Source: Hyphomonas sp. (GTDB taxonomy: Bacteria; Pseudomonadota; Alphaproteobacteria; Caulobacterales; Hyphomonadaceae). From it: a stretch of DNA of 64,000 nucleotides. Below the pieces are notes generated by a model. The model was not told the DNA's origin. It searched no databases and was given only the letters and a program-made list of their open reading frames with translations. The translations under genes were made by a program, and so were the position numbers. Below are positions 4,415 to 26,045 of this stretch, in pieces (position 1 is the first letter of the stretch; every line of letters starts with the position of its first letter). The stretch covers positions 62,001 to 126,000 of the forward strand of contig VMTE01000018.1 in the NCBI GenBank assembly GCA_013791775.1. The letters are read 5' to 3'.

Positions 4415-5167
4415 CTAGAATGGCGCTCCGGCGGATTGTGCTAACCACACCGCGAATCCGCCGAGCGCGATCCATGGGCCGAATGCGATGGCCGAGGTGG
4501 CACTGAGCGGTGCGGACCGGCGAACCGACGCCGAAAGCGCCGCCAGGATTCCCGTCAGTGACGCGAGCAGAAGGACCGGAGCGATCCCCGTGGCGCCCAC
4601 CCAAATGCCGAGCGCGCCGAGCAACTTGGCGTCACCGCGTCCAAGCCCGTCGCGGCCGCGCAAGCGCCGGTACGCAAACTCCACAATCCACAAAAGGCCA
4701 TAGCCGATCACGGCGCCGGCAACATGGATCGGCCATGCAGCAGGCCGGGTCAGGGCGACCATCACCGCTCCCAGTGCGAGCACCGCCGCGTTCAGGGCGT
4801 CCGGCAGAAGGTACGTGCGCAGATCAATTGTTGCGAGGGCCAGGAGCAGCCACCCAAGCAGAGCGGTCAGCGTCAGGGTGTCAGGCGGCGCCCAGAATAC
4901 AGCCGCAACGGCCACTCCGGCGCCCGCCAGTTCCGTGACGGGCACGGACCAGCCGATGGGGCTCTTGCAGGTGCGGCAACGCCCCCGCGCAGCCACCCAA
5001 CTGATCAGGGGGATCAGTTCATACCAGGCGAGAGGCCGGTCACACGCCCTGCAACGCGAACGGCCGGTGACCCAGGATTCCTCATGCGCGAACCGGTCGG
5101 CACTGGCATCAATGGCGGACCCCACCAGCAAGCCCGCCAGTACCAGAAACAGCTCGAACGACGTCAT
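4415..5167 (-). CDS. gspO: Type II secretion prepilin peptidase (A24 family)
   Basis: About 250 residues from MTSFELFLVLAG; an in-frame ATG nine codons upstream (5194) is less typical. Cleaves the leader of pseudopilins and N-methylates the new N-terminus at the inner membrane. Two CxxC pairs (CRACDRPL, CRTCKSPIGW) form the cytoplasmic zinc-type loop, and the aspartyl-protease residues lie in DLRTYLLPD and GRGDAKLLGALG. Multiple membrane spans follow. It is divergent from gspG and serves the neighbouring pseudopilins GspG, H, I, J and K. Confidence 0.93.
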   Translation of the reverse strand: MTSFELFLVLAGLLVGSAIDASADRFAHEESWVTGRSRCRACDRPLAWYELIPLISWVAARGRCRTCKSPIGWSVPVTELAGAGVAVAAVFWAPPDTLTLTALLGWLLLALATIDLRTYLLPDALNAAVLALGAVMVALTRPAAWPIHVAGAVIGYGLLWIVEFAYRRLRGRDGLGRGDAKLLGALGIWVGATGIAPVLLLASLTGILAALSASVRRSAPLSATSAIAFGPWIALGGFAVWLAQSAGAPF

Positions 5168-5253
5168 GGAAGCGCACACCTGCGGCGCCGCCACGCTTGG
5201 CGTGGCGCAAAAAATGCGTATCCTTTCAGATTGTGGGACAAGGACATTCTCAA

Positions 5254-5700
5254 ATGCAACGGGACGCTCGGATCAGCCGCTCGCAGGCGGGCTTCAGCCT
5301 TATGGAACTGCTGGTGGCGCTTGTCATCCTGGCTCTCGTGATGGGTATCGTCGCCCCGCGCGTGATCGGCTATCTGAGTCGCGCCAAGTCGCAGACAGCC
5401 GAGGCGCAGGTAAAGAACATTCAGGGCGCGCTCGATCTTTTCCTGATCGATGTGGGCCGCTACCCGACCGAGAACGAGGGCCTGCAAGCCCTGATCGAAG
5501 CACCAGCAGGCAGTGCCGGCTGGGCGGGCCCTTACCTCGACGACGAGGAAGCGGTCCCGCTCGATCCCTGGGGCAATGCTTATCTCTTTTCGTCGACGGA
5601 AGACGGCCTGCGCGTGCGTGTCTTTTCGCTCGGCCGGGACGCCGCTGAGGGCGGAACCGGTGAAGACGCCGATATCGGCCGTCCTGGAAAATCTCAGTAA
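5254..5700 (+). CDS. gspG: T2SS major pseudopilin GspG
   Basis: 148 residues from MQRDARISRS. This start is chosen over one 19 codons upstream because AAGGA lies nine bases before it and the short basic leader ends at the prepilin site QAGFSLMELLVALVIL. The C-terminal half has hallmark GspG sequences: YPTENEGLQALIE, GPYLDDEEAVPLDPWGNAY and the calcium-loop region. It polymerises into the pseudopilus that pushes substrates through the secretin. Unusually it stands alone on the plus strand between leftward gspO and gspK, and its 3' end overlaps that of gspK by seven bases. Confidence 0.95.
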   Translation: MQRDARISRSQAGFSLMELLVALVILALVMGIVAPRVIGYLSRAKSQTAEAQVKNIQGALDLFLIDVGRYPTENEGLQALIEAPAGSAGWAGPYLDDEEAVPLDPWGNAYLFSSTEDGLRVRVFSLGRDAAEGGTGEDADIGRPGKSQ

Positions 5701-6608
5701 CACGGGCTCGGATCGGGCAGGCTGGCGCCAGCGGCCATCACAGGCTCGGGGCCTGCTGCGCGCTCTTCGATCCTCCGGCGATTTCCCGACAGGATTCGTT
5801 CCTGCGGCCCGTAGGTCGCCGCCTCACCGGTGACGAAACCGGAGCGCGTCTGCGCGATCACTTCGACAATCACGGGCGCGCCGGCGAAGGGCGCGGCCGT
5901 GCCGTCGCCCGGGTCGGCCCATGCCGCCTCCGCCAGCAAGGCGCCGGCATCCGAACCGAGAGCCTGAATGGCGGCAAGGACCTCGGGCGACGCAAACAAC
6001 GGATCCATCTGCACACTGTGGGAATGCGCTGTGACGTGCGCCAGCAGGGCGGCGACGAGCTGCGGCGGCAGGCCGAGTACCTCGGAGAGCTCCCCGGTGC
6101 GCGTGAACGGCCGGTTGGCCGGGCCATGGCCCAGTCCGGCGCTCACGTAGTCCTGATACTCTGCGCCGCCCGGCCGGATTGAGGTGTCACCGTCCCGGTA
6201 GTCGGCGATGCGGGCGGCATAACTGGCGGCGTCAGGGCCCCGGACGCCCAGCACGGCGATCAGCGCGGCGAGTGTCTCCTCCTGCGCGGCATTGATGTCG
6301 ATGAGCGCGGTGACCGGGCGCGCATCGATCAGCAGGCGGCCATCTTCGACATCGCACACGATCGGGAAGCCGATGGAATTGCCGGCCGTCGGCTGTGACA
6401 GGCGGGCCAGCGCAATGCGCTGTCCGCTTTCGATCATCAATTGCGCAGAAACGGCGTCGCGCAGCCTGTTGCCTTCCAGCGCATCCAGATGGGAATCGCG
6501 TGCAATCAATGCGCCGATGACGGCCATCAGGCCGATCGCCCAGACCACAAGAATGAGCGCGGCGCCCCGGTCCTGCGCCTTGCGCGCACCGGAGCGCCGC
6601 CGGGTCAT
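5694..6608 (-). CDS. gspK: T2SS minor pseudopilin GspK
   Basis: 304 residues. The leader DRGAALILVVWAIGLMAVIGAL matches the GspK prepilin-type N-terminus. A large globular domain follows with IDINAAQEETLAALI and RTGELSEVLGLPPQLVAALL, the helical Pfam T2SSK domain. GspK caps the pseudopilus tip with GspI and GspJ. The start overlaps the gspD stop by four bases (ATGA), so it is the last gene of the leftward half-operon L-M-C-D-K. Confidence 0.93.
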   Translation of the reverse strand: MTRRRSGARKAQDRGAALILVVWAIGLMAVIGALIARDSHLDALEGNRLRDAVSAQLMIESGQRIALARLSQPTAGNSIGFPIVCDVEDGRLLIDARPVTALIDINAAQEETLAALIAVLGVRGPDAASYAARIADYRDGDTSIRPGGAEYQDYVSAGLGHGPANRPFTRTGELSEVLGLPPQLVAALLAHVTAHSHSVQMDPLFASPEVLAAIQALGSDAGALLAEAAWADPGDGTAAPFAGAPVIVEVIAQTRSGFVTGEAATYGPQERILSGNRRRIEERAAGPEPVMAAGASLPDPSPCY

Positions 6609-8728: not shown

Positions 8729-8768
8729 TCTACTCTATCCCCGCCTTCTGCCTGTTCAGGATGTCCCT

Positions 8769-9251
8769 TTAGCGACCGGGGTAGAGCAGGAGAGTCGTTC
8801 TGAACTCCCCCCTTGAAAGAGCCACGCGGTCGGCCCGCACGCTTTCAAGAGTCCACCCGTCGATCGAGTTCCCGAGGTTCACCCACTCGATGTCGCCTTC
8901 GACATTCCGCTGGAGTGATGCACGGGCCATGCCATTTGCCAAAACCACGCCTTTCAGCTGGAAGGGCGCTTCAGTCAGTTCCGCGCCGCTGCCCGCGCCT
9001 GAGGTCGACTCTGCCGCAAACGGCTGGCGGTTTGGGTGGAACAGCGGCTTTTCAGCAGATGCCCGGGCCCGATCAGCCGACGCGGTCAAGGCCGGCATTT
9101 CCGGCGGCGTCAACGTCGGGCGCACCTCAGCTGGCATCTCGACGCGGCTCATGGCGCCCGTCGAAAGCAAGGTCAGTCCCAGCAGGAGCAGGCCGCAAAC
9201 ACCGGCCAGAATTGCCGCTACAAAAGCTGTCGGTCCCCTGACAAAGCTCAT
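8769..9251 (-). CDS. gspC: T2SS GspC-like inner-membrane protein lacking PDZ
   Basis: 160 residues: one membrane span (AAILAGVCGLLLLGLTLL), a linker rich in Ala/Pro/Thr, then KPLFHPNRQPF and a small beta domain (FQLKGVVLANG, WVNLGNSIDGWTLE) that fits the homology region of GspC/PulC, which contacts the secretin N0 domain. Normal GspC is about 270-300 residues and ends in a PDZ or coiled-coil domain; none is encoded here. Position between gspM and gspD supports the role. GspN-type assignment is an alternative. Confidence 0.75.
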   Translation of the reverse strand: MSFVRGPTAFVAAILAGVCGLLLLGLTLLSTGAMSRVEMPAEVRPTLTPPEMPALTASADRARASAEKPLFHPNRQPFAAESTSGAGSGAELTEAPFQLKGVVLANGMARASLQRNVEGDIEWVNLGNSIDGWTLESVRADRVALSRGEFRTTLLLYPGR

Positions 9252-9836
9252 CTATTTGTCCTCCGGGAGCGCATAGGCGTAAACGTCCAGCCGGACCTGC
9301 AGGACAGGCGCCTGGACATCGCTCGTCAGGCGGCTGCTGCCTGAGGAGAGCTGGAAATTCGCCTCGCGGACAAACAGGCGCGGGTTGGAATGGTCGAGCG
9401 CAAACAACGTGTCGCCGAGTTCGCGTTGGGTGGCCATCGCGATCACCCTGACGCCCGCTTCGCGCAAGTCTCCTGCGCGTTTACCGTCGAGCGGCTGGAT
9501 GCTTTTCAGGTCAGCGCCTGCGTCCTGGAGGATCCGGCGCACGATGGCCTGAACGCTGGCCGCGGCCTGCGCATCGGTCGAGGCGGGCAGGGCCAGGGTG
9601 GTGGCGCGGATATTCGCCACGCGGTCGTTCGAAGCACCTTGCATGATTTCGGCGGACGCCGCGATGCCGCGCCACTTGGCAAGTTCGGCCTCGCCCTTCC
9701 GGATTTCTGTCTGCTTGCCGGCAACCATGTCGCTCACGGGGACCGCGACGACAAAGGCCGCGATGGCAAGGGCAGCGACCAGAAAGCCGCCGGCTATCAG
9801 GTTCTGGCGATCACGGGGCAGGCTGTAGAGATTCAT
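9252..9836 (-). CDS. gspM: T2SS assembly-platform protein GspM
   Basis: 194 residues. A short cytoplasmic N-terminus (MNLYSLPRDRQN) precedes one membrane span (AGGFLVAALAIAAFVVAV), then a coiled-coil/ferredoxin-like periplasmic domain with VQAIVRRILQDAGADLKSIQPL. GspM is the partner of GspL. It overlaps gspL by four bases and abuts gspC directly, as expected for L-M-C. Sequence conservation of this family is low, so the order of genes carries much of the weight. Confidence 0.85.
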   Translation of the reverse strand: MNLYSLPRDRQNLIAGGFLVAALAIAAFVVAVPVSDMVAGKQTEIRKGEAELAKWRGIAASAEIMQGASNDRVANIRATTLALPASTDAQAAASVQAIVRRILQDAGADLKSIQPLDGKRAGDLREAGVRVIAMATQRELGDTLFALDHSNPRLFVREANFQLSSGSSRLTSDVQAPVLQVRLDVYAYALPEDK

Positions 9837-10942: not shown

Positions 10943-10992
10943 GTTCTGTCCCCGGCACCTGCCCAATCTCCCCCGAGACTGGAAAGGGCTCG

Positions 10993-11070
10993 CTTCTATT
11001 GTTGATGCAAATCGCTAGGAGTCAATTCACACCCTTTGCGGTTCGCGGTCTTCTATGATGTTATGCAAAT
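10993..11070. promoter_or_regulatory. Two direct repeats in the divergent gspL/gspE promoter region
   Basis: The 194-base region between the gspL and gspE starts holds two copies of CTTCTAT-(5 or 6 bases)-ATGCAAAT, at 10993-11012 and 11050-11070, in the same orientation and about 58 bases apart. A shared operator controlling both halves of the T2SS cluster is inferred. No known regulator consensus was recognised. Confidence 0.5.
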
Positions 11071-11136
11071 GGCACACCACATGCTTGGCCGGGGGGCTGG
11101 CACCGTGTGCTGAGTTTGTGTGGGGACACTGCAGGC

Positions 11137-14069: not shown

Positions 14070-14502
14070 CCTCCGGAACGCGGCAGGCTTTTCCCTGCTG
14101 GAGCTGATGGTGGCCCTCACCATCCTTGCGCTCGCCATGAGCGTCGTCTCGATCTCGGCTACGCGCCGCAGCCCGTCCTTCGAGATGCAACGCCTTGCCG
14201 GCAACGTGGTGAGCCTTCTTCGCGAGGCGCGGCTTGACGCACAGACCAGCGGCCGGCCCGCCTGGGTTTCGTTTGATGCAGATGCCCGTGAGCTGAGCCG
14301 CAACGGCGGCGAAGGGGTTTCGATTCCGGAGGACGTGGATGCAAGTCTCGTGTCGTCCGCATCGGCCGGATCGCCGGCGATCATCTTCTTTCCGGACGGT
14401 TCATCGACCGGCGGCGAGTTCGCTCTGGAAGGCTCCGGGCGCCGGGAGCGGGTGACGGTCGACTGGCTGACGTCGCGCATCGAGCGGCTGGATCCGGCAT
14501 GA
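14053..14502 (+). CDS. gspH: T2SS minor pseudopilin GspH
   Basis: 149 residues. Prepilin cleavage motif AAGFSLLELMVALTILALAM after a short leader, then a GspH/FimT-type globular domain (LAGNVVSLLREARLDAQTSGRPAWV; IIFFPDGSSTGGEF). Overlaps the end of gspF by 17 bases and gspI by four, so it is translationally coupled on both sides. Confidence 0.92.
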   Translation: MTSRSDLRNAAGFSLLELMVALTILALAMSVVSISATRRSPSFEMQRLAGNVVSLLREARLDAQTSGRPAWVSFDADARELSRNGGEGVSIPEDVDASLVSSASAGSPAIIFFPDGSSTGGEFALEGSGRRERVTVDWLTSRIERLDPA

Positions 14503-14858
14503 CACAGCGCGGCTTTACCTTGATGGAAACCCTTGTGGCGCTGGTGATTTTCAGCCTCGCCAGCATGTCTTTGCTCGAGCTTTATTCACGATCGGCGCGC
14601 GCCAAGGCGGCTCACGATTCGCTGATAGAACGGACCAACCGGGCGCAGGAGCTGTTGGTCGATATCGATGTCGATCGCACCTACGAGCCATCCCGCCGGG
14701 GCAGCGATCCGGACGGCACGGTCTGGGATGTCACCATGGCGCCGGTCGGGGTGCAGCTGGTACGTATCGACATAAAAGTGACCGACCGGGCAGGGCGCGA
14801 GGCGCATCTGCAGACTCTGAGATTGCCCGCTGAGCTGCACATGGACGCAGGCCCATGA
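14499..14858 (+). CDS. gspI: T2SS minor pseudopilin GspI
   Basis: 119 residues. Prepilin motif RGFTLMETLVALVIFSLASM and a short globular domain typical of GspI (NRAQELLVDID, DGTVWDVTMAPVG). Together with GspJ and GspK it forms the pseudopilus tip. ATGA overlaps with both gspH and gspJ. Confidence 0.92.
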   Translation: MTQRGFTLMETLVALVIFSLASMSLLELYSRSARAKAAHDSLIERTNRAQELLVDIDVDRTYEPSRRGSDPDGTVWDVTMAPVGVQLVRIDIKVTDRAGREAHLQTLRLPAELHMDAGP

Positions 14859-15466
14859 CCCGCGTGCGCCGCGCCTCGCCGGGCTTCAGCCTCCTCGAAA
14901 TGCTGGTGGGCCTGACCCTGCTGGCACTGATCTCTGTGGCCGTGACCCAGTCGGTGCGCACGGGCCTGAGGCTGTGGCAGGCGGCTGAAGCCAACGACAG
15001 CGAAGGCGAGTGGCAGCAGACAGGTTGGATGCTGGAGCGCTGGATGTCGCGGGCCCTTTCGCCAAGGTCGTTTGACCTCGACAGCCGCGTGATTTTCGAG
15101 GCGCGCGCGGACGGTGTGCGCTTTCTCGTGGATGGCCAGGTCGGCCGCAAGCCGGCCGGATATTCCCGGATCGGCCTTGTCGCGAAAAGCAATCCCGTAT
15201 GCCCGAACCAGTCTGATTTCGTTGTCACCTGGGAGGATGTTTCATTCGCGTCACATTTCGCGCCGGGCGCGAGCGACGAGCGGGTCTTGTTCGAATGTGT
15301 CGATGGCCTGGTGTTTGACTACGGACCGGTTTCGCCCGCCGAGGGCAGCCCGTTTCCGAACGACTCATCAGGCGCATCCGCCGAACTGCCACGCACCGTC
15401 CGCATCCGGTTTACCGCAGGTGGCAAGACGCGGTCCCTGTCAGCCAGCCTCCTGTACGCAAGGTAA
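14855..15466 (+). CDS. gspJ: T2SS minor pseudopilin GspJ
   Basis: 203 residues. Prepilin motif SPGFSLLEMLVGLTLLALISV and a GspJ-type domain (GLRLWQAAEAN, ERWMSRALSP, RTVRIRFTAGGKTRSL). It ends the rightward T2SS half-operon, 222 bases before the giant multicopper oxidase gene on the same strand. No clear terminator was seen between them, so read-through is possible. Confidence 0.92.
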   Translation: MTRVRRASPGFSLLEMLVGLTLLALISVAVTQSVRTGLRLWQAAEANDSEGEWQQTGWMLERWMSRALSPRSFDLDSRVIFEARADGVRFLVDGQVGRKPAGYSRIGLVAKSNPVCPNQSDFVVTWEDVSFASHFAPGASDERVLFECVDGLVFDYGPVSPAEGSPFPNDSSGASAELPRTVRIRFTAGGKTRSLSASLLYAR

Positions 15467-15688: not shown

Positions 15689-18600
15689 GTGTTGGGTGGG
15701 ATTTCGAAGCTGGCCGTCGGGCTGGCTGTGTGCGCATTTGGCGCCTTCGCGAACAATTTTGAAGCTCAAGCACAACTACCGGTGTGTGGCAGGACGGTGA
15801 AGGCGGAGGTTGTCGCCTTCGACCAACCTCTGATGTTCAACCGGATTGGCGCGCAAAACGTCAACGGCATGATCTATGCCCTCCGGTCGGATGTGGTGGA
15901 CCAGTCGACGGGAAAACCGGAGGCTGCAGGTGGTACGCTGACCGCCGGCAACGTCGCGCTTCGCCCCGACAAGCGGCCCCGGCCGATCGTGCTGCGCGTA
16001 TCGGTTGGCGACTGTCTCGAAGTCAAATTCACCAACCTGCTCAGCTCCCAGTCGAACCCGCGCAATGCGACGCCGGCGATCATGCAGATCGACGATCAGG
16101 TCGCCGAACGCCGCGCTGGTTTCACGCCGCTGGGCCTCAGCGCCCTCAATTCTGCCGGCGACACTTCGTCCTTCGTCGGCAAGAACGCCAACACGCTCGC
16201 AAACCCCGGGCAGACCAGAACATACCGCTTCTTTGCTGACGCCGAGGGCGCCCACCTCGTGCTGTCGCATGCGGTGACGTTCGGGGGCGAAGGCACCGGC
16301 GGCAACCTCTCGAACGGCCTGTTCGGCGTCGTCCAGGTCGAGCCGGTCAATTCCAGTTTCCACCGCAGCCAGGTGACCGAAGAGGACATGCGCCTCGCCA
16401 CGATCGGCACAACGCCGACCGGCCAGCCGATTCTCAACTACGAAGCGCGCTACCCCAACCGGGCCCCCTGGACGATCGAAGGCAAGGCCGGCAAACCGAT
16501 CCTCAACATGCTGGACATCAGCGGTTCCAGCGTGAAGCTCGTCGCCAGCGATGTCACGGCAATCATCTCGGGCACCAATCCGGACGGATCGTTCGTACCC
16601 GCGACCTATCCGCTTGAGGCCCAGGGCAAACGTAACCCCGCCCTGCCGAACCGCCTTGAACCGTTCCGCGAGTTTGTCGCCATCTTCAACGATGAAACGG
16701 TGTCAAAGCAGGCGTTTCCGTTCTGGTACGAGGATCCGGTTTTCTCGCATACGCTGCACGGTGTGGGCGATCACTTCATGATCAACCAGGGCGCGGCGGG
16801 CGTCGGCTCGGAAGTCATCGCGAACCGCCTTCGCGTCGGTCCCGCACATGACTGCCTGTCATGCGCCTACGAGGAGTTTTTCCTCACGTCTTTCGCGATG
16901 GGTGATCCGGCACAACTGGTCGATGTTCCGGCCAATGCCGGTCTCGAATTCTGCACGCCGCAACCCGGCGATCCGTTCTGCGAACGTGATCCCAGCATCC
17001 GCGCGTCGTATGTGAAGTACCCGGACGATCCGGCCAACGTTTCGCATTCCTACGTCGGAGACTTCGTGAAGTTCCGGAACCTGCACGCGGGTCCGAAGGA
17101 GCATCATGTGTTCCACCTTCACAATCACCAGTGGCTGGCAAATCCCGACGATGACAACTCCAACTACAATGACGCCCAGGGCATCGGCCCGGGCGGCAAC
17201 TACACGTATGAGATTGCCTTTGGCGGATCGGGTAACCGGAACAAGTCGGCCGGCGACGCCATCTATCACTGCCACTACTATCCGCACTTTGCACAAGGCA
17301 TGTGGGCCCTGTGGCGCAACCATGACACGTTCGAGCCGGGTACCCAGCTCGATGTAGCGGTCGGCGCTGACGGCTATCACCGCGATGCGTTTGCGCTGGA
17401 GCGCGGCAAGCCGGCGCCGGGCGCGCGGGCCTATCCGGATGGCGAAGTGCTCGCGGGCGCGCCGATTCCCGCCCTCGTTCCGCTGCCGGGCAAGGCGCTC
17501 GCGCCGATGCCGGGACGTGTCTATGTTGCTGCCGTCGACAAGAACAATGATGGCCAGCCGGAATCGAGCCAGGCGGTCATCGACCGGGCGGACACGGATC
17601 CGTCGCTCGTCGATACCCGCACGGTTCTCGCGTCCCTGAACCCGGCAGACCCGGCCAACCAGCTGAACCCGACCGGCCTCAAGAATCCCGGCTACCCCTT
17701 CTGGGTCGGCGGCATGGAGGGGGCTATCGGTCAGCGCGCGCCCTCGCCGCCGCTCGACATGGCGCCCAACCCGGGTGACCCGACCACAGGCGGATGGGAT
17801 GGCGGCTTGCCGCGTCACTTCCTCGATGGCTACGCCGTCGGCGGCCTGACCGAAGAGCACCAGACCCGCTTCTCGTTCGAGAAACACCTCGACAAAGCCA
17901 AGGCCAGATATCTCAGCGAGTACGGCAACGATGTCGAACGGGCCGCCATGTCGTTCCACGCGACGCGGTTTCATCCGTCATTCCGCCAGCTTCTGAATGG
18001 AACGGTTCAGGCTGCGTCGTTCCGCGCGAACGGTCAGATGCCGCATCCCGGTTCGCCTTTCTTCGAGCCGTGCGTGGATGACGAAGGTGATCTCTTCACG
18101 ACGGGCACGGTCGGCCAGTTCTTCTCCGGAACGGCAGGCAGTGTTGCCAACACCTTCACGGCCGCATTCGGCGCCGACAATCCGCGCGTCTACAAGGCCG
18201 CGAACATCCAGCTCGACGTGGTCTTCAACAAGCTCGGCGACCACTTCCCGCAACAGCGCATCATTACGCTCTGGGAAGACGTGGCACCAACGCTCGCCAA
18301 GACGCGTCCGCCGGAGCCGTTCGTGTTCCGCCTGAACTCGTATGATTGCGCGATGTACTACCAGACGAACCTGGTCCCGGAATTCTACATGGTGGACGAC
18401 TACCAGGTGACCACGCCGACCGACATCATCGGCCAGCACATTCACCTTCCGAAGTGGGACCTCGTCTCAGCCGACGGTTCGGCCAACGGCTGGAACTATG
18501 AGGATGGTGTTCTCGGAGCCGAAAGCGTCCGTAACCGGATCGAAGCCATCAACCGCTATACGCTGGAAGAAGGCACCGGCGAGCCTGTGCTGACCGCCCT

Positions 18601-21382
18601 GGCGCACCCCTTCTTCGGGGCGGGGCCAAACGGCAAGTATCTCGGTGCCCGCACGATGATGCAGCGCTGGTTCGTGGACCCCCTCCATAACTTGAATGGA
18701 CGCGATCGCGGTCTCGGTGTGACCTTCACGCACGACCACTTCGGTCCATCGACGCACCAGCAGGTGGGCCTCTACGCCACGCTTCTGATCAATCCGGCGG
18801 GCTCCGTGTGGAAACACAACGAGACTGGCGTATCGCTCTATACCCGTGCAGACGGTGGCCCGACCTCCTGGCAGGCGATGATCCTGGCGGGCGACATTGA
18901 CGGCGACGGCGAAGATGACTCGTTCCGCGAGTTCTATCTCGAGGCACAGGATTTCGCGCACGCCTACAACAAGGATGCCTGGACCGGCGTGAATGCGAAT
19001 GGCGACCCGGCACCGCCCACGGACGACTCGTTCCGTTACGCTCTCAACCCTTCGGTTCGTAAAGCCAAGGCGTTCCCGGATGCGGTGATCCTTTCGTCCG
19101 TGTGCCCCGGTGGTCTGCCGCGGCCCTGTCCGGAAGCCATTTCGGCCGATGATATCGGCACGTTCGTGATCAACTATCGCAACGAGCCGGTGGGTTACCG
19201 TGTCTACGATCCGGACAAGATCGGTCCGGATGGAAAGCCCGGCATGCAAGCCGATGGTCTTGCGGGTGACCTCGCTTACGCCTTCCAGACGCGGACGGAT
19301 CGCAAGATCCCGCAGTTCAATACGAAACTTGGCTCGACGCCCTATCCGGCGATGACGAAAGACGTGCGTGATGGTGACCCCTTCACGCCGATCCTTCGCA
19401 CCAATGCGGGTGACATTGTCCGCGTGAAGATCCAGGCCGGTGCGCACGAGCACGAGCACGTGTCGTCGATCCACGGCATCAAGTGGCTCAGCGGCGGCGG
19501 CGGTTTCGGCACCAGCCCGAACTCGGGTTGGCGGTCTTCGATGCAGGTTGGTCTCTCCGAGAAGGCGTCGTTCGCGTCTTCGATGTTCGGAGACATCGAT
19601 CAGGTCACGACGGCATCTGACTACCTCTATACGTCCGACTCTTCCCAAGAAGGGTTCTGGACGGGCAGCTGGGGCTTGATGCGGACCTATGAAACAGCGC
19701 GCCCTGATCTGGCAAACCTGCCGAACAATCCACGCGGTGTCCCGATCTCGATCACCAACCGGAACCAGTTCAACGGGGTCTGTCCGAAATCGGCGCCGGT
19801 CCGCAGCTACGACATCACGGCTGTTGCGGTGAACAAGGTCATCAATACGCCTTACAATACGTCGATCATTCCAGCGGACGCCTCTGCATTCATGCACGTA
19901 GGTGGATCGCTGGACCCGAACGGCGGTACGCTGCGCTACAACACGCGCGGCACATCGCTTTCAAATGGCGAACAGGGCCCGCTGCATGACCCGACCGCGC
20001 TGGTCTATATTCCGACGTCTGATCTCCGCAAGGACATCGTCACGGATGCGGACCGGGCCCAATGTGCCAACCGGTACGGCGGTGTGGAAAACCCAATGTG
20101 TCCGGCAAAGTTGCCGAACACCTACAAGTTCGAGCCGATCTCGCTCCGGGCCATTGCGGGTGAGTGCATCGAAGTGACATTGCGCAACCGTCTGCCCACC
20201 CTGGTGCCGGACCTCGCGGGCTATGTCACGCAGCACTACACGGTCATCCGTGATCGCTCCGATCCGGCCGGCTACACGACGTTCAACAACAACCTGATCC
20301 GTCCTTCGAGCCATATCGGCTTTCACACCCAGAAAGTGGAATACGACATCTCGCGGGATAATGGCGTGAACGTGGGCATCAACCCGGTTCAGACCATCGC
20401 TCCGGGCAGTACGCGTACCTACCGCTTCTATGCTGGCGATCTCGAGCTGGGACCGCGGGCCTATGGCTCGGGTGAAGGCAAGGGCGGCGGCGCGTCGGGC
20501 GGCCTCTGGGGCAATACGTTCGAGATGGTTGCGCGTCCGGTCGAGTATGGCGGCATGCCGATCATGCCGGCAGACCTGATCAAGCAGGGTCAGAAGGGGC
20601 TGTTCGGTATGCTGACGATCCTTCCGCAAGGCTCGACCTTCACGGTCGATCCGGAAACCACAGCCCAGGCAACCGTGGTGCTTCCGGGTGGCCAGCAGGT
20701 CCGCGACTTCTCGATGATCATCCAGAAGGCCATCAACCTGCGCTATCGCGACGGTACGCCGGTCGAGAACATCGCCGGCGAAGGACCTGGTGTTCCCGAA
20801 GACGCGCACGATGCGGGCGCAGCCTCGATCAACTATGGTACTGAACCGCTCTGGTTCCGCTTCGGCCTGGCTGCAGGATCGGATTGGGGCATCGGCGGCG
20901 CCGGCCACGTTGATCCGGGTGGTGAGGCTGATCCCGGCGATGGCACATTGCCAACGCCAACAGGTCCGGGTTTCGCAACGCTGACCAACGCTTTCCGTGC
21001 CTATTCGAACGCGTTGACAGGCGGAAATGATCCGCAAACACCAGTCTTCAAGGCCAAACCAGGTCAGGAATTCCGGCTGCATGTGTCCACACCAGTGGGT
21101 TATGCCCGGAGCACCACGCTGGCGATCCTCGGCCACAACTGGCGCGAAGAACCGTTCATGTCAGTGAACGGCCCGTCGGATGTCATGGCTGACACCTGGC
21201 GCGCGCGCTACCGGTCGACCGCCGACAACATCGTGACCGGCACGGCCTGGAACATCCTGACCAAAGGGGGCGGATCACAAGGTGCGCCGGGAGACTATCT
21301 GTATCGGGACGTGGCATCCTTCGGGAACACGAATGGACTTTGGGGCATCGTCCGGGTCGAAGAACCGGCAGTCACGCCGTAG
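15689..21382 (+). CDS. Giant secreted multicopper oxidase (MofA/MnxG-like, putative Mn(II) oxidase)
   Basis: 1897 residues. A GTG start is preceded by a purine-rich GGGAGGGGG; a Sec signal ends near EAQAQ. All four multicopper-oxidase copper motifs are visible but in permuted order: HxxHxH at 473-478 (HVFHLH), the T1/T3 motif HCHYYPHFAQGM at 527-538 with axial Met538, then HxH at 917-919 (HIHLPKW) and HxH at 1015-1017 (THDHFGP). A further His cluster HEHEHVSSIH lies at 1253-1262. Length and layout suit the large manganese oxidases (Leptothrix MofA, Bacillus MnxG, Pseudomonas putida MnxG/McoA), far longer than laccases of about 500-600 residues. The gene heads an operon with SCO chaperones and a cytochrome c. 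The MCO fold is sure; the Mn substrate is inferred. Confidence 0.9.
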   Translation: MLGGISKLAVGLAVCAFGAFANNFEAQAQLPVCGRTVKAEVVAFDQPLMFNRIGAQNVNGMIYALRSDVVDQSTGKPEAAGGTLTAGNVALRPDKRPRPIVLRVSVGDCLEVKFTNLLSSQSNPRNATPAIMQIDDQVAERRAGFTPLGLSALNSAGDTSSFVGKNANTLANPGQTRTYRFFADAEGAHLVLSHAVTFGGEGTGGNLSNGLFGVVQVEPVNSSFHRSQVTEEDMRLATIGTTPTGQPILNYEARYPNRAPWTIEGKAGKPILNMLDISGSSVKLVASDVTAIISGTNPDGSFVPATYPLEAQGKRNPALPNRLEPFREFVAIFNDETVSKQAFPFWYEDPVFSHTLHGVGDHFMINQGAAGVGSEVIANRLRVGPAHDCLSCAYEEFFLTSFAMGDPAQLVDVPANAGLEFCTPQPGDPFCERDPSIRASYVKYPDDPANVSHSYVGDFVKFRNLHAGPKEHHVFHLHNHQWLANPDDDNSNYNDAQGIGPGGNYTYEIAFGGSGNRNKSAGDAIYHCHYYPHFAQGMWALWRNHDTFEPGTQLDVAVGADGYHRDAFALERGKPAPGARAYPDGEVLAGAPIPALVPLPGKALAPMPGRVYVAAVDKNNDGQPESSQAVIDRADTDPSLVDTRTVLASLNPADPANQLNPTGLKNPGYPFWVGGMEGAIGQRAPSPPLDMAPNPGDPTTGGWDGGLPRHFLDGYAVGGLTEEHQTRFSFEKHLDKAKARYLSEYGNDVERAAMSFHATRFHPSFRQLLNGTVQAASFRANGQMPHPGSPFFEPCVDDEGDLFTTGTVGQFFSGTAGSVANTFTAAFGADNPRVYKAANIQLDVVFNKLGDHFPQQRIITLWEDVAPTLAKTRPPEPFVFRLNSYDCAMYYQTNLVPEFYMVDDYQVTTPTDIIGQHIHLPKWDLVSADGSANGWNYEDGVLGAESVRNRIEAINRYTLEEGTGEPVLTALAHPFFGAGPNGKYLGARTMMQRWFVDPLHNLNGRDRGLGVTFTHDHFGPSTHQQVGLYATLLINPAGSVWKHNETGVSLYTRADGGPTSWQAMILAGDIDGDGEDDSFREFYLEAQDFAHAYNKDAWTGVNANGDPAPPTDDSFRYALNPSVRKAKAFPDAVILSSVCPGGLPRPCPEAISADDIGTFVINYRNEPVGYRVYDPDKIGPDGKPGMQADGLAGDLAYAFQTRTDRKIPQFNTKLGSTPYPAMTKDVRDGDPFTPILRTNAGDIVRVKIQAGAHEHEHVSSIHGIKWLSGGGGFGTSPNSGWRSSMQVGLSEKASFASSMFGDIDQVTTASDYLYTSDSSQEGFWTGSWGLMRTYETARPDLANLPNNPRGVPISITNRNQFNGVCPKSAPVRSYDITAVAVNKVINTPYNTSIIPADASAFMHVGGSLDPNGGTLRYNTRGTSLSNGEQGPLHDPTALVYIPTSDLRKDIVTDADRAQCANRYGGVENPMCPAKLPNTYKFEPISLRAIAGECIEVTLRNRLPTLVPDLAGYVTQHYTVIRDRSDPAGYTTFNNNLIRPSSHIGFHTQKVEYDISRDNGVNVGINPVQTIAPGSTRTYRFYAGDLELGPRAYGSGEGKGGGASGGLWGNTFEMVARPVEYGGMPIMPADLIKQGQKGLFGMLTILPQGSTFTVDPETTAQATVVLPGGQQVRDFSMIIQKAINLRYRDGTPVENIAGEGPGVPEDAHDAGAASINYGTEPLWFRFGLAAGSDWGIGGAGHVDPGGEADPGDGTLPTPTGPGFATLTNAFRAYSNALTGGNDPQTPVFKAKPGQEFRLHVSTPVGYARSTTLAILGHNWREEPFMSVNGPSDVMADTWRARYRSTADNIVTGTAWNILTKGGGSQGAPGDYLYRDVASFGNTNGLWGIVRVEEPAVTP

Positions 21383-21392
21383 ATCTGCAGTT

Positions 21393-21421: not shown

Positions 21422-21454
21422 TGCTCTGGATTGTAGAGAGCCGGGTACCTGGAC

Positions 21455-23401
21455 ATGACGCCATTCTGGAAATCTGATCGCTTTCGTCAGGTCGCGCCTG
21501 CGATGGCACTGGCAGCCGGCGTGTTCGTGATCGGCGCCTTTCTGGTCTTCCGGACTGAACCCGCCGCCGTTTCGGGAAAATCAATCTCGCGCGAGGGGCT
21601 GAAGGTCGACTTTTCGGTCACATCCGTGATCGCCCCCGGCGAACCGCTCAAGGCGGGTGAAATCGCCCGGGTCAGCCTCAAGTTCACCGACACCAATACC
21701 GGCAAGCCGGTAACCGGTCTGTTGCCGGCCGCCTGGATCGATCCGCTCCGCCAGGGCACGCATTCGGACCAGGAGTCGTGCCGTGCGTCGGCGGCCACCT
21801 ATCTCAGCGGATATGTCGGCATCCGGCCGATGATTGACCTGAACAGCTATTATATCGTCGTGCTGAATGCCGACCCGACGATTGCCGTCATTGATCCGAT
21901 CATCGGCGTGCGTGGCATCACGAAACTGCTGACCCAGGTGATCCTGCCGGGGCCGCCGGAAGACTGGGCCCGGTCTGCAGACGAGAAGCAGGTCTACGTT
22001 GCCATGCCGACGGCCGATGCCGTGAGTTTTGTCGACCTGGACTCCTTCCGGCTGATCGACACGGTCAAGGTTGGAGAGAGCCCTACGCGGATAACCGTGC
22101 AGCCCGACGGCCGCTACGCCTGGGTTGGAACTGTCGGTGCCAAATCCGGCGTGTCGGTCCTCGATACCGAGAAGCTGGAAGTCAAAGCCCATATCGAAAC
22201 CGGCAAAGGCCACCACGAACTGGTCGTGACCTCCGACAACCGGTTCGCGCTCGTCAGCAACCGGGATGACCGGACGGTGAGCATCATCGATGTGAGAAAG
22301 CTAAAGAAAACGAAGGACGTCGCGGTTACGGGCCTGCCCATCTCGCTGGCCTATTCGCCGCTGTCCAAATCGGCCTATGTCGCCGACGGCGAAACCGGGA
22401 ACGTGCTGGTCCTGGACCCGGCGTCCGGCAAGATCCGGGCAACCATCCCGCTGGAAAAGGGGCTGGGACCCATGCGGATCACACCGGACGGGCGCTTCGG
22501 TTTTGTGGTCAATCCGTCCAAGGATGTTGTATATGTCTTTGACACAGCCAACAATCGCGAGGTCCATCGCCTCGATGTCGAGGGCGAACCCTTTCAGGTC
22601 GTATTCTCGCGGTCTTATGGTTATGTCCGCTCGCTTGCGAACAACACGGTCTCCATGATCCGGCTTGCCGATATCGGCGGCAGCGAACAAGTGGTGATTT
22701 CGAATTTCCAGGCCGGCGAGCGTCCGCCCAAGGACTCGCCGCATCTTCTGCCATCGGATCTTTTCGCGACGGCCGTGACGGAGGCCTCCACGCTAGTCGT
22801 CAGCCCGGGTGATGCGAACGTCTTCTATTACATGGAGGGCATGAACGCACCGATGGGCAGTTTTGGTAACTATGGTCACCGCCCGCTCTCGGCCATTGTC
22901 GCAGATCGCACGATCAAGGAAGTCGCGCCGGGCGAGTACAATTCGACGGTCAAGATCCCCGTGGAAGGCGACTACCAGTTCATTCTCACGCTCGACTCGC
23001 CCCAGATGATCGAGTGCTTCGATTTCGCGGCGGCCTTGAACCCCGAACTGGCAAGCGACGAGCTTCCGCTGCGCATCGCGTATGACAACCGGGGCGGCAT
23101 GCTCACCCCGGCCGGCGAGGAAGTGAAAATCCACTTCACCCTGAACGACACGGCCAAAGGCGGCGCGCCCTATGAGGGCACGGACGTCAAGGTTCTGACC
23201 TTCCGGGCGCCCGGCCAGGACCGCACCGAGCATGCGGTGAAATCGCTGGGCGATGGCAAGTACGAGTTTGCCTTCACGCCAGAGGTCTCCGGCGCCTACT
23301 ATATGTATCCGTCGGTTGCGAGCGCCGGGCTCGACTATTCCAAACTGCCGTTCATCACGATCATCGTTCAGGATCCGGGCACAGGCGGGGGAACGCCGTG
23401 A
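21455..23401 (+). CDS. Membrane-anchored YVTN beta-propeller protein of the MCO operon
   Basis: 648 residues. One N-terminal membrane anchor (APAMALAAGVFVIGAFLVF), an Ig-like region with conserved Cys in SDQESCRAS, then about seven repeated blades of YVTN type (VYVAMPTADAVSFVDLDSF; YAWVGTVGAKSGVSVLD; FALVSNRDDRTVSIIDV; AYVADGETGNVLVLDP; FGFVVNPSKDVVYVFD). A C-terminal beta-sandwich domain has YQFILTLDSPQMIECF. Exact function unknown; similar proteins accompany large multicopper oxidases, where a scaffold or electron/metal-handling role is possible. Its stop overlaps the next start (GTGA). Confidence 0.85.
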   Translation: MTPFWKSDRFRQVAPAMALAAGVFVIGAFLVFRTEPAAVSGKSISREGLKVDFSVTSVIAPGEPLKAGEIARVSLKFTDTNTGKPVTGLLPAAWIDPLRQGTHSDQESCRASAATYLSGYVGIRPMIDLNSYYIVVLNADPTIAVIDPIIGVRGITKLLTQVILPGPPEDWARSADEKQVYVAMPTADAVSFVDLDSFRLIDTVKVGESPTRITVQPDGRYAWVGTVGAKSGVSVLDTEKLEVKAHIETGKGHHELVVTSDNRFALVSNRDDRTVSIIDVRKLKKTKDVAVTGLPISLAYSPLSKSAYVADGETGNVLVLDPASGKIRATIPLEKGLGPMRITPDGRFGFVVNPSKDVVYVFDTANNREVHRLDVEGEPFQVVFSRSYGYVRSLANNTVSMIRLADIGGSEQVVISNFQAGERPPKDSPHLLPSDLFATAVTEASTLVVSPGDANVFYYMEGMNAPMGSFGNYGHRPLSAIVADRTIKEVAPGEYNSTVKIPVEGDYQFILTLDSPQMIECFDFAAALNPELASDELPLRIAYDNRGGMLTPAGEEVKIHFTLNDTAKGGAPYEGTDVKVLTFRAPGQDRTEHAVKSLGDGKYEFAFTPEVSGAYYMYPSVASAGLDYSKLPFITIIVQDPGTGGGTP

Positions 23402-24078
23402 CCCGTCATTCGCGCCTGCTTCGGGATGTCCTGACACTTTCTGTTTCAGTTGCCCTGCTTGGGTTGGCGGCCGGGTGCGGCGACGCGAAAAGCAACGGAA
23501 AGTCGGACCATGACGGCGCGGGCCACGTCCATTCGGCCAGTGCCGCGACCCTGCCGCCGACAGGTTCCGAACAGCAGGCACTTGTGGTGCTCAGCGACGC
23601 GCCCATGCTGGATCAGACCGGCGCCGAGCGCCACCTCAAGACAGATGTAGTCGGTTCACGGATCGTCGTGGTCGATTTCATTTTCACCAGTTGCCAGACG
23701 ATCTGCCCCGTGACGACAGCGCTTCTGGCGCAGGCCAAGGGCAATCTGACCGACATGCCGTCAGATATGGTCACCTTCGTTTCGATGAGTGTGGATTCCA
23801 GCGTCGATACACCGGAGCGGCTGGCGAGCTTTTCCGCCGCGCACGGTGCTGACTGGACGTTCCTGACCGGTGACAAGCACGTGATGGACGAGGCGCTCAC
23901 CTGGCTGAATGCTTATTCGACCAATCCGGAAGACCATGCTGCGATGATCCTCATCGGCGATGCAACGACCGAACGATTCACGCGCATCTACGGCATGCCG
24001 GACCCGAAATTCGTTGAAGCGCGGGTGCGGGAGCTGGTTGATGCCCGCACTCGCGATTCTTCCCAGCACAGACACTGA
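23398..24078 (+). CDS. SCO1/SenC copper-chaperone lipoprotein (first copy)
   Basis: 226 residues, GTG start overlapping the preceding stop. Lipoprotein signal with lipobox LAAGC near residue 27, a His-rich linker (DHDGAGHVHSA), then a thioredoxin-like SCO domain with the copper-binding CxxxC in FTSCQTICPVTT and the distal His in DHAAMILIG. SCO proteins deliver copper to, or reduce cysteines in, copper oxidases. Here it probably metallates the neighbouring multicopper oxidase rather than cytochrome c oxidase; no cox gene is in the window. Confidence 0.93.
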   Translation: MTRHSRLLRDVLTLSVSVALLGLAAGCGDAKSNGKSDHDGAGHVHSASAATLPPTGSEQQALVVLSDAPMLDQTGAERHLKTDVVGSRIVVVDFIFTSCQTICPVTTALLAQAKGNLTDMPSDMVTFVSMSVDSSVDTPERLASFSAAHGADWTFLTGDKHVMDEALTWLNAYSTNPEDHAAMILIGDATTERFTRIYGMPDPKFVEARVRELVDARTRDSSQHRH

Positions 24079-24088
24079 GGTCAAACCG

Positions 24089-24721
24089 ATGCCCACGTTC
24101 CGCCCCATCCTCCGCCTTGTCGCTGCGTCCGCAATGGGCGTCCTGTTCAGCCTCGGCGCCCTGGCGCACGGCGGCTCGCACGAGCCGGGCGGGAAGGTGG
24201 AAACACGCAATGTGAGCGCATCAGACACGGAAGCGAAGGCCCGCGAGTATTTCACCGACACGGTTCTGACCAGCCACACCGGCGACAGTCTGAAGTTCTA
24301 CTCCGACATCCTCGAAGGCCGCACAGTTGTGATCAGTTTCATGTTCACCACCTGCGAAGATGCCTGTCCGCTGATCAATGCGACGCTGCAGCGCATTCAG
24401 GAACGCCTGAAGGACCGGATGGGGAAAGACATCTTCATCATCTCGATCACGGTCGATCCGAAAGTCGATACGGCGCCGGTGCTCGCGAGCTACCGCAAGC
24501 AGTTCAAGGCCGGTGCGGGGTGGCTGTTCTTCACCGGTTCGGAAAAGAATGTGGAAACCGTCAGCGGCAAGATGGGACAGGTCTTCGACAAGGAGGCCCA
24601 CCTCACGGCCCTGCTCGTCGGCAACACGAAAACCGCGCGCTGGCGCAAGATTCCGGCAAACCTGAGCGACGCGATCATCGCCGCGCAGATCCAGGACATT
24701 GCCGATGGCACATACGACTAG
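24089..24721 (+). CDS. SCO1/SenC copper chaperone (second copy)
   Basis: 210 residues from MPTFRPILRLV; this start has GAGG eight bases upstream and begins a Sec signal ending at ALAHG. The SCO domain has CxxxC in FTTCEDACPLIN, IISITVDPKVDTAPVL and the distal His in KEAHLTALLVG. It differs clearly in sequence from the first copy, so the two are old paralogues, possibly one for copper transfer and one for disulfide reduction. Ten bases separate it from the first copy. Confidence 0.93.
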   Translation: MPTFRPILRLVAASAMGVLFSLGALAHGGSHEPGGKVETRNVSASDTEAKAREYFTDTVLTSHTGDSLKFYSDILEGRTVVISFMFTTCEDACPLINATLQRIQERLKDRMGKDIFIISITVDPKVDTAPVLASYRKQFKAGAGWLFFTGSEKNVETVSGKMGQVFDKEAHLTALLVGNTKTARWRKIPANLSDAIIAAQIQDIADGTYD

Positions 24722-26045
24722 AACGTCGGCGCTGATCGCGCTCATCTGCTTTCTGCTGGTGCCCGTCGCCTGCGCCGAGCGTTCCGCCTCGCAGGAGCGG
24801 GGGCGCGCGATCTATTTCGGTGACAATGGTTCAGCGCTGGACGGCGCCGAGGTGCAGATCGGCGCGCTCACGACGAAACTCCCGGCACGGACGTTTCCGT
24901 GCGCCTCGTGCCATGGCCGTACCGGTTCGGGACAATCCGAGCGGGGCGTTAATCCCAGTCAGATCACGCGGGACGCGCTGACACGTCCGTATTCGGTGAA
25001 GGAATCGGCGGGCCGCAAGCGTCCGCCCTATACGGCGGCGACGTTCCGCAATGCGGTCCGCAACGGCAAGGATTCCGGCGGCAACGCGCTCGCCGAGGCG
25101 ATGCCGCGCTTCAACTTCACCGACAAGCAGCTGGCCGACATCTGGGCTTTCCTTGAGGTCATTGATGATGTCACCGATCCGGGCGTCAGCGACGACGCGA
25201 TCCGGGTGGGCGTGGTGGTCGATGCGGCGAACCCGGTCACACAGCCGCAGCAGAAATTGCTGAATGTGCTGGCCGCAGACATCAACAAGATCGGCGGTGT
25301 CAACGGACGGGCCCTGACATTCGTGCCTTTGACGCCCAAAGGCGCGGCCGGGGACACCGTCTTTGCGCTGATCGTCCCGCAAGGCGCGGCCCCCGCAGGA
25401 CTGGCGGCGGACGTGCCCGTGATATCGGTTCTTCCCCCGCCGGTTGCTGCCGCGGGCGCCTTTGCGCTGGTGACCAGCGAAGCCGATCAGGTCGCCGCAC
25501 TGAAACGCTTTGCCGCCGAAACCTGGGGCGTCGTTCGCGTCAAGGATGCCTGCGCCGCACGGAAAGGCGACACCGTCCTGCTGGCGGCGGCAAGCTGCGC
25601 TGGGTCGGCCAAGGTCGCCAGCCGGGTCCTGATGACCCAATCTGTCTTTGCCAGCACTCCGCCGGCGAGCCGGTCGCAATTGCCGCCCGACAGCTATGTG
25701 TCGATCGCGGCGCCGCTCAGCCGGATCGCCCCGAATGCGCAGGCGGCCTTCGCCAAGACCCGCTCGCGGGCCGGCAACGACAAGTCCGCCATTCTCGCCG
25801 AGGCAGACGCGTATTCGGCGGCGGCATTGTTGGTGGAAGCCCTTATGCGGACGGGGCGGGATGTGTCGCGCGCCGGCGTCATCGAAAACATCGAGGGTAT
25901 CCGCAATTTCGAAGGCGCGATGACCCCGCCCTTGTCCTTCGGCCCGAACCGGCACGTCGGGTCGCGGGGCGCCGAAATCGTCCGGTATGACGCCAAGACC
26001 GCGACCCTCGCCCCTGGCGGAACCTGGATCGACACCGACATGTAA
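24705..26045 (+). CDS. Cytochrome c fused to a periplasmic-binding-protein-like domain
   Basis: 446 residues from MAHTTRTSAL, with AGGA eight bases upstream; a TTG two codons earlier is possible. It overlaps the second SCO gene by 17 bases. A signal sequence precedes a class I cytochrome c domain with heme motif CASCH and probable axial Met in AEAMPRFNFTDKQLADIWAFL. From about residue 165 a second domain begins (DDAIRVGVVVDAANPV, LAADINKIGGVNGRAL) and ends with FEGAMTPPLSFGPNRHVG, typical of type I ABC substrate-binding proteins but shortened. Likely electron acceptor for the oxidase; the ligand of the binding domain is unknown. Confidence 0.85.
   Translation: MAHTTRTSALIALICFLLVPVACAERSASQERGRAIYFGDNGSALDGAEVQIGALTTKLPARTFPCASCHGRTGSGQSERGVNPSQITRDALTRPYSVKESAGRKRPPYTAATFRNAVRNGKDSGGNALAEAMPRFNFTDKQLADIWAFLEVIDDVTDPGVSDDAIRVGVVVDAANPVTQPQQKLLNVLAADINKIGGVNGRALTFVPLTPKGAAGDTVFALIVPQGAAPAGLAADVPVISVLPPPVAAAGAFALVTSEADQVAALKRFAAETWGVVRVKDACAARKGDTVLLAAASCAGSAKVASRVLMTQSVFASTPPASRSQLPPDSYVSIAAPLSRIAPNAQAAFAKTRSRAGNDKSAILAEADAYSAAALLVEALMRTGRDVSRAGVIENIEGIRNFEGAMTPPLSFGPNRHVGSRGAEIVRYDAKTATLAPGGTWIDTDM

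What the first reader, a model, noticed from the sequence alone, without database searches (positions are those of the whole stretch)
4415..26045. T2SS cluster directly next to a giant multicopper oxidase operon: possible secreted Mn(II) oxidation module
A nearly complete T2SS gene set ends 222 bases before an operon for a 1897-residue secreted multicopper oxidase, YVTN protein, two SCO chaperones and a cytochrome c. In Pseudomonas putida, Mn(II) oxidation needs both large multicopper oxidases and a type II secretion pathway. Leptothrix mofA is likewise followed by a cytochrome gene (mofC). Physical linkage of the exporter and oxidase suggests a dedicated export route, which I have not seen described as one locus.
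Basis: partly seen in the sequence, partly recalled or inferred. Interest (0 to 1): 0.75.

Follow-up and report, generated by a model that had tools for sequence, protein, structure and literature searches.

The report
Probable manganese oxidase beside its exporter
In some Hyphomonas-family bacteria, genes for a giant copper enzyme that resembles known manganese-oxidizing enzymes sit next to a second, complete protein-export machine and usually to genes for sticky surface fibres, a conserved package that suggests how such bacteria could put a mineral-making enzyme on their surface.

Summary
The window is from a Hyphomonas-type genome. Its T2SS core is complete: gspG is at 5197-5700 (+). The 1897-aa oxidase matches NCBIfam MnxG (NF041487) end to end at 2229.6 bits, below that model's cut-off of 3100.

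Of 105 family genomes, 10 carry the oxidase; T2SS genes adjoin it in 9, and in G026 the contig ends there. A T2SS of this type occurs in 6 of the 95 others, all in genus g10. Indioceanicola pairs an MnxG relative with a T2SS of another lineage. Fourteen other giant-oxidase loci show no T2SS; 35 other CsgF places none.

Best reading: a co-inherited module that copper-loads an MnxG-like oxidase in the periplasm and exports it folded through its own T2SS. Mn(II) as substrate, export and a curli scaffold are inferred, not shown. T2SS-dependent Mn oxidation is known in Pseudomonas putida; no one-locus form was found in the searches made.

The parts
3157..4302 (-). conserved, probably exported protein of unknown family beside gspO
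   Evidence: no Pfam match; homologue found in G028, G050, G061, G072 of the loci compared
4415..5194 (-). gspO prepilin peptidase
   Evidence: PF06750, PF01478
5197..5700 (+). gspG major pseudopilin, opposite strand
   Evidence: PF08334 3.6e-32; genome search
5694..6608 (-). gspK
   Evidence: PF21687
6605..8728 (-). gspD secretin with lipobox LAAC (probable liposecretin)
   Evidence: PF00263, PF03958, PF21305; lipobox by pattern
8769..9251 (-). gspC
   Evidence: PF11356 weak, below cut-off
9252..9836 (-). gspM subtype b
   Evidence: PF10741
9833..10966 (-). gspL (PilN domain)
   Evidence: PF05137
11107..12861 (+). gspE ATPase
   Evidence: PF00437, PF05157
12861..14069 (+). gspF
   Evidence: PF00482
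14053..14502 (+). gspH pseudopilin
   Evidence: PF12019
14499..14858 (+). gspI-like pseudopilin
   Evidence: N_methyl; XpsI/GspI below cut-off
14855..15466 (+). gspJ-like pseudopilin
   Evidence: N_methyl; GspJ very weak
15689..21382 (+). MnxG-like giant multicopper oxidase, 1897 aa, Sec-type signal peptide by eye
   Evidence: NF041487 1-1894 of 1894, 2229.6 bits, cut-off 3100; 9bxa
21455..23401 (+). YVTN beta-propeller with C-terminal YtkA domain, N-terminal membrane anchor by eye
   Evidence: TIGR02276, PF13115
23398..24078 (+). SCO1/SenC, probable lipoprotein
   Evidence: PF02630; lipobox by eye
23960..24721 (+). SCO1/SenC (true start probably further in)
   Evidence: PF02630
24699..26045 (+). 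c-type cytochrome, one CXXCH by eye, plus a C-terminal domain that in the Indioceanicola homologue weakly matches Peripla_BP_6 (28.5 bits, cut-off 31.7)
   Evidence: PF13442, PF00034; homologue
26114..26818 (+). csgF
   Evidence: PF10614 4.6e-35
26820..28124 (+). csgG
   Evidence: PF03783 2.2e-57
28144..29580 (+). curlin-repeat protein (CsgA/CsgB type, 8 repeat stretches)
   Evidence: PF07012; NCBIfam CsgB/CsgA below cut-off
29522..30688 (+). curlin-repeat protein
   Evidence: PF07012
30689..31195 (+). curlin-repeat protein
   Evidence: PF07012

Best explanation
The locus is a co-inherited extracellular oxidase module. Proposed mechanism: (1) the MnxG-like apoenzyme enters the periplasm by its Sec signal; (2) the two SCO proteins, and perhaps the propeller-YtkA protein, help load copper, and the enzyme folds; (3) the second, dedicated T2SS with a self-piloting liposecretin exports the folded holoenzyme to the cell surface; (4) there it oxidizes Mn(II) with O2, with curli fibres of the same locus as a likely matrix; the cytochrome c handles electrons or maturation in the periplasm. 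Shown by sequence: gene identities, gene order, conservation, co-inheritance and intact copper motifs. Inferred: export of this oxidase by this T2SS, Mn(II) as substrate, the roles of SCO, cytochrome and curli.
For: Full-length NF041487 match and 9bxa homology. Copper motifs C and B in 25 of 25, D in 24 and A in 23 of 25 homologues. Operon resembles the P. putida GB-1 mnxG operon, whose figure legend names a lactonase-fold propeller and a SCO protein (PMC8218464, section 7 read). T2SS genes beside the oxidase in 9 of 10 oxidase-bearing family genomes, the tenth cut by a contig end. GspD of this type (at least 44% identical over 400 or more residues) in 8 of those 10 (G051 and G031 contigs end before it; other T2SS genes are there) and in 0 of 36 MnxG-negative genomes of genus g1 and 0 of 25 of g3 (Fisher 1.9e-7 and 4.2e-5 with all 10 counted as present, uncorrected for kinship). 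On an rpoB tree of 27 genomes 5 independent pairs, T2SS going with MnxG in 4.7 on average, never against (sign test p 0.0625). MnxG, GspE and GspD trees agree in their main split. Second pairing in Indioceanicola with another T2SS lineage; AU test rejects one clade of linked T2SSs: p 0.0006 GspE, 1.6e-11 GspD. A Fuscovulum plasmid has a T2SS next to a different 777-aa oxidase and a SCO-cytochrome fusion. Literature: a review passage states that T2SS products oxidize manganese in P. putida, citing De Vrind 2003 (PMC3521999 passage; the 2003 paper itself not seen).
Against: NF041487 cut-off not met (2229.6 against 3100). Six genomes of genus g10 have the T2SS type without MnxG, so it is not MnxG-specific. 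Fourteen other giant-oxidase loci, 11 of them from two-membrane bacteria, show no GspD, E or F match over 45 bits in the DNA held, so a linked T2SS is not needed for related operons. If g10 lost MnxG, one old linkage is not excluded by GspE (AU p 0.142), though GspD rejects it (p 0.002). The phylogeny-aware pair test cannot reach 0.05 with 5 pairs. In one search not every first-look candidate was scored in some genomes (for example 10 of 18), so absence of the T2SS type is not proven genome by genome. No Mn-oxidation phenotype for these organisms was found (3 papers listed, not read).
Confidence: 0.62

Rival explanations
1. The module exports a multicopper oxidase through the T2SS, but its natural substrate is not Mn(II): it oxidizes Cu(I), Fe(II) or organic compounds.
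For: Score below the MnxG equivalog cut-off; no phenotype known to us; related giant oxidases with a propeller-SCO-cytochrome gene order occur in Paracoccus, Shinella, Roseomonas and others, for which no Mn oxidation was looked up here.
Against: Full-length collinearity with MnxG and a much higher score (2229.6) than the Roseomonas (758) or Sphingobium (667) oxidases; propeller and SCO as in the GB-1 mnxG operon.
Confidence: 0.25
2. The T2SS and the oxidase operon are neighbours by accident of one old event and serve different ends; the oxidase stays in the periplasm or leaves by another route.
For: Fourteen other loci of related oxidases show no T2SS; a T2SS of this type exists without MnxG in genus g10.
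Against: The order E-F-H-I-J-oxidase is kept across two genera while T2SS proteins diverge (GspE 47-61%, GspL down to 24% identity in G026, G028, G031, G032, G050); gains or losses go together; separate pairing in Indioceanicola.
Confidence: 0.13
3. The T2SS exports another cargo of the locus, such as the unknown protein at 3157-4302 or curli-associated proteins, and the oxidase depends on it only indirectly.
For: The 3157-4302 protein is conserved beside gspO in G028, G050, G061 and G072; curli genes are part of the locus.
Against: Curlins have their own CsgG pore here; Indioceanicola keeps the T2SS-oxidase pairing although the only csgG match on that plasmid is about 500 kb away by the shorter arc.
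Confidence: 0.1

Closest known systems
MnxG of Pseudomonas putida GB-1 and its operon
   Same: Full-length match to the MnxG model; propeller and SCO genes in the operon (PMC8218464 section 7); T2SS required for secretion of the Mn-oxidizing factor (title of De Vrind 2003, seen as a reference).
   Different: No T2SS gene is named in the published GB-1 operon figure legend; here the T2SS and curli are in the same locus. Score below the equivalog cut-off.
Xcm/Gsp-related secretion genes of P. putida GB-1
   Same: T2SS-related genes tied to Mn oxidation. From recall only, the xcm genes lie beside homologues of csgEFG; that P. putida has csgEFG is in PMC3056050 (passage).
   Different: From recall, Xcm lacks C, L and M homologues and is not beside mnxG; the window T2SS has a full set. 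Sequences not compared.
Bacillus MnxG (PDB 9bxa)
   Same: Homologous core with the four copper motifs.
   Different: 1227 aa against 1897; works with MnxE and MnxF on spores (recalled; partners not searched for here).
OmpB / OxpG of Geobacter sulfurreducens (names recalled)
   Different: By its title it serves reduction of insoluble electron acceptors; sequences not compared.
MofA-MofB-MofC of Leptothrix discophora
   Same: Giant oxidase gene in an operon with a cytochrome gene.
   Different: mofB is a mip-type gene and no T2SS is named in the section read; MofA sequence not compared.

Membership tests
MnxG (NCBIfam NF041487 equivalog) | collinear full-length match | tested here: met
   positions 1-1894 of 1894 in residues 33-1891
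MnxG (NCBIfam NF041487 equivalog) | score at or above curated cut-off 3100 | tested here: not met
   2229.6 bits; 0 of 105 family genomes over the cut-off; so MnxG-like, not filed as MnxG equivalog
MnxG (NCBIfam NF041487 equivalog) | Mn(II) oxidation | not testable with these tools
   needs assay
multicopper oxidase | four copper-ligand motifs | tested here: met
   C from about 473, D HCHYYPHFAQGM 527, A GQHIH 915, B HDH 1015; aligned to 9bxa. Pfam PF07731 itself is just under its cut-off (19.4 against 20.4)
type II secretion system | core C, D, E, F, G, H, I, J, K, L, M, O | tested here: met
   C, I and J by weak matches and position
type II secretion system | exports a folded substrate | not testable with these tools
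   needs secretion assay
P. putida Xcm-type pathway | sequence kinship to Xcm proteins | not tested
curli (type VIII) system | CsgG, CsgF and curlin repeats | tested here: met
   Pfam cut-offs passed; NCBIfam CsgF, CsgG, CsgA/B below their cut-offs
curli (type VIII) system | CsgE | tested here: not met
   PF10627 0 of 1 genome (own); control rang in E. coli

The most novel reading that the evidence does not exclude
One inherited package for extracellular Mn mineral making: a dedicated T2SS, a copper-loading set (two SCO, propeller-YtkA, cytochrome c), an MnxG-like Mn oxidase and a curli amyloid that anchors the enzyme and templates the oxide. The pairing of T2SS with copper oxidase plus SCO has arisen more than once (Hyphomonas family, Indioceanicola, Fuscovulum), which would define a class of T2SS specialised for periplasmically metallated oxidases.
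Probability: 0.33. Interest if true: 0.82.

Novelty: new variant of a known kind. Interest (0 to 1): 0.63.

Why it matters
How Gram-negative bacteria place giant Mn oxidases outside the cell has rested largely on P. putida mutants, with oxidase and exporter genes in separate places (recalled). A locus that holds exporter, copper chaperones, oxidase and surface fibre together makes the exporter-substrate pairing directly testable by single deletions, and gives a marker to find more such bacteria. It also suggests a rule: T2SSs encoded beside SCO and multicopper oxidase genes export enzymes that must be copper-loaded in the periplasm first.

Tried and rejected
Sigma-54 promoter upstream of the oxidase (MnxR of P. 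putida being an NtrC-type regulator, recalled): no canonical site in 10 of 10 upstream stretches; a looser pattern hits 7 of 10 but not the window; not claimed. Terminator between gspJ and the oxidase: none listed on the + strand in 15467-15688. Horizontal transfer of the module into G028: MnxG places it with genus g1, rpoB with g3, but the AU test does not reject a g3 clade (p 0.107), so not claimed. T2SS-curli linkage as a general rule: rejected, 0 of 35 CsgF places in 34 other genomes show GspD/E/F at E 1e-4 in the DNA held (10.8 to 20 kb each). Insertion site by the tex neighbour: in 10 MnxG-negative genomes neither tgt nor module genes lie in the 19-20 kb around tex; uninformative. Structure models failed: cytochrome mean pLDDT 40, oxidase core 25; not used, no fold search made. 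Heme peroxidase in own genome: no match, but no control rang either. Rows dropped: G000hk and G086 were left out of the T2SS trees as long branches; G099 was never fetched; G104 has no GspE in the DNA held; G051 and G031 have no GspD there; G051, G060 and G065 gave no rpoB match and are not in the rpoB tree; the first rpoB tree had three rows in a wrong frame and was redone. Of 30 plasmid records with an oxidase match, 13 were fetched; of 903 plasmid records with a GspD match, 15 were listed and 7 of those fetched.
Full report
What is there. The window lies in a 3.93-Mb genome (G000, contig C47). The genus is taken from record titles: contig lengths of L004-L007 equal those of G061, G072, G060 and G051, which are same-genus genomes, and two of the four titles read Hyphomonas sp.; the other two read Sulfopaludibacter and Acidobacteria, which the kinship column contradicts. 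From 4415 to 15466 runs a T2SS with O, G, K, D, C, M, L on one side and E, F, H, I, J on the other. GspG is on the + strand at 5197-5700, inside the minus-strand run. After 222 bases comes the 1897-aa oxidase, then a propeller protein with a YtkA domain, two SCO proteins and a cytochrome c, and csgF, csgG and three curlin-repeat genes. CsgE was not found in the genome.

What the oxidase is. It matches NF041487, MnxG, from end to end with 2229.6 bits. The cut-off for the equivalog is 3100, and no family genome passes it (0 of 105), so it is MnxG-like and not filed as MnxG. Indioceanicola's homologue scores 1409.5, Roseomonas 758, Sphingobium 667.4. Outside the family the model rang at E 1e-50 in only 1 further genome of a class sample of 385 and 1 further of a phylum sample of 398, with partial matches of 191 and 312 bits. 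Bacillus MnxG 9bxa is the only solved chain at E under 1e-20 (2.2e-74); the printed alignment pairs HHVFHLHNHQW, HCHYYPHFAQGM, QHIH and HDH with their counterparts. A pattern count finds motif C in 25 of 25, B in 25, D in 24 and A in 23 of 25 homologues. In a tree of 25 oxidases the 10 family proteins and Indioceanicola form one starred group. P. putida MnxG, McoA and Leptothrix MofA could not be put in.

Is the pairing real? Among 105 genomes of the family, 10 hold the oxidase. In 9 of them gspE-F-H-I-J lead in the same direction into the oxidase; the G051 contig begins in gspM and the G031 contig ends after gspM, so D and beyond are not held there; in G032 a GspG match lies on the far side of the oxidase operon; in G026 the contig ends just upstream with one weak gspH match, while D, E, F, L and M lie on another contig. 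The curli genes are near in 7 of the 8 loci whose held DNA reaches that side (not in the 20 kb held of G026; G061 and G031 contigs end before; in G032 csgG is about 7 kb from the cytochrome gene). GspD of this type (44% or more over 400 or more residues) is found in 8 of the 10, and in 6 of the 95 genomes without the oxidase, all in genus g10. Counting G051 and G031 as present by their other T2SS genes, it is 6 of 6 against 0 of 36 within genus g1 and 4 of 4 against 0 of 25 within g3. These Fisher values ignore kinship, and one search did not score every first-look candidate in some genomes. On an rpoB tree of 27 of the 30 genomes searched, MnxG needs 5 changes, and in 5 independent pairs the T2SS goes the same way 4.7 times on average, never the other; p 0.0625, the least possible with 5.

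Co-inheritance and recurrence. MnxG and GspE trees split G026/G031/G032 from the rest, and GspD (without G031) does so for G026/G032. The g10 T2SSs are sister to the linked ones (GspE 93/90, GspD 100/99 for the linked group). Indioceanicola profundi (another order, sea sediment) carries on a plasmid M, L, a pseudopilin, H and G on one side of its oxidase, propeller and two SCO genes, and F, E, O, D and K on the other; its cytochrome match is some 12 kb further on. Its T2SS does not group with the linked family ones (AU p 0.0006 for GspE, 1.6e-11 for GspD). A single old linkage with loss in g10 is rejected by GspD (p 0.002) but not by GspE (p 0.142); grouping with the other Azospirillaceae T2SSs is not rejected either (p 0.133, 0.449). 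Just upstream of that oxidase is a protein of about 1476 aa with QQN-G-N repeats that resemble curlin repeats (26 pattern matches in the 1612-aa ORF) but without a Pfam match; the one csgG match on that plasmid is about 500 kb away by the shorter arc. On a Fuscovulum ytuae plasmid a T2SS stands next to a different, 777-aa multicopper oxidase and a SCO-cytochrome c fusion.

Controls. Fourteen other oxidase loci (12 plasmid records and G235, G573; three of the 14 from one-membrane organisms or archaea) show no GspD, E or F match over 45 bits in the DNA held, though several have the same propeller-SCO-cytochrome order. Thirty-five CsgF places in 34 other Pseudomonadota genomes show no GspD, E or F. 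Six further plasmid T2SSs fetched for the trees (Indioceanicola plasmid 2, Skermanella, Rhizobium, Acidisoma, Methylorubrum, Neorhizobium) show no oxidase, propeller or SCO match to the window's genes in about 20 kb, so the T2SS as such does not come with an oxidase.

How it likely works. T2SSs export folded proteins (established knowledge). A copper enzyme that must be loaded by SCO proteins in the periplasm fits such a route. GspD has a lipobox by pattern, so it may pilot itself. The cytochrome and the propeller are likely periplasmic helpers. Curli, exported by CsgG, could hold the enzyme and the oxide. Steps after gene identity are inference.

What is known. T2SS genes are required for export of the Mn-oxidizing factor in P. 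putida GB-1 (De Vrind 2003; I saw its reference and short uses in PMC3521999, PMC4509608, PMC3056050 and PMC3798386, not the paper). From recall only, those xcm genes sit beside csg homologues, which would make the T2SS-curli-Mn oxidase triad an echo of this locus. The GB-1 mnxG operon has a lactonase-fold propeller and a SCO gene (PMC8218464, section 7 read). A multicopper protein exported by an atypical T2SS is on record for Geobacter (title in the reference list of PMC11708043, passages seen). Library searches for MnxG with type II secretion (0 papers), curli with manganese oxidation and T2SS (0), oxidase with T2SS and manganese oxidation (2 papers; passages of one read, the other not) and Hyphomonas with these oxidases (3 papers, not read) gave no account of such a locus; of two wider searches only listings of 15 papers each were seen (of 399, none of the 15 naming MnxG, of 123). 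(20 listed, titles and abstract starts only) also showed none.

Verdict. Novelty: new variant of a known kind.

Noticed in passing
L066 3-9664 and L084 13979-17088 (G094, genus g10): The related T2SS of G094 lies beside a SCO gene, two small multicopper oxidases and a haem peroxidase of over 2115 aa with RTX repeats, with genes that by eye look like a type I exporter next to it: possibly a MopA-like Mn-oxidizing peroxidase cluster (name from recall). Other g10 loci (G095, G101) have other neighbours.
   Followed up: partly
L181 1594-13844 (Fuscovulum ytuae plasmid): T2SS next to a 777-aa multicopper oxidase and a SCO-cytochrome c fusion protein.
   Followed up: partly
L081 14920-19758 (Indioceanicola plasmid): Long QQN-G-N repeat protein directly upstream of the MnxG-like gene; curlin-like by pattern, no Pfam match.
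   Followed up: partly
L087-L091 (Shinella, Paracoccus, Roseivivax plasmids): Oxidase genes for about 2350-2420 aa, followed by propeller-, SCO- and cytochrome-position genes (not all so named in Shinella and Roseivivax), each preceded by a divergent protease gene (trypsin-like, serine or C1 peptidase).
   Followed up: no
window 15630-15644: Inverted repeat GGAT-N7-ATCC about 45 bases before the oxidase start, alike in several close relatives.
   Followed up: no
window 3157-4302: Conserved, probably exported protein without Pfam match at the T2SS end.
   Followed up: no
L005, L007 record titles: Two MAG contigs titled Sulfopaludibacter and Acidobacteria hold this locus; contigs of the same length belong to same-genus genomes here, so the titles look wrong.
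   Followed up: no
G000 contigs C22 and C19 (L001, L002): Two further multicopper oxidases in open frames of 661 and 620 aa elsewhere in the genome.
   Followed up: no
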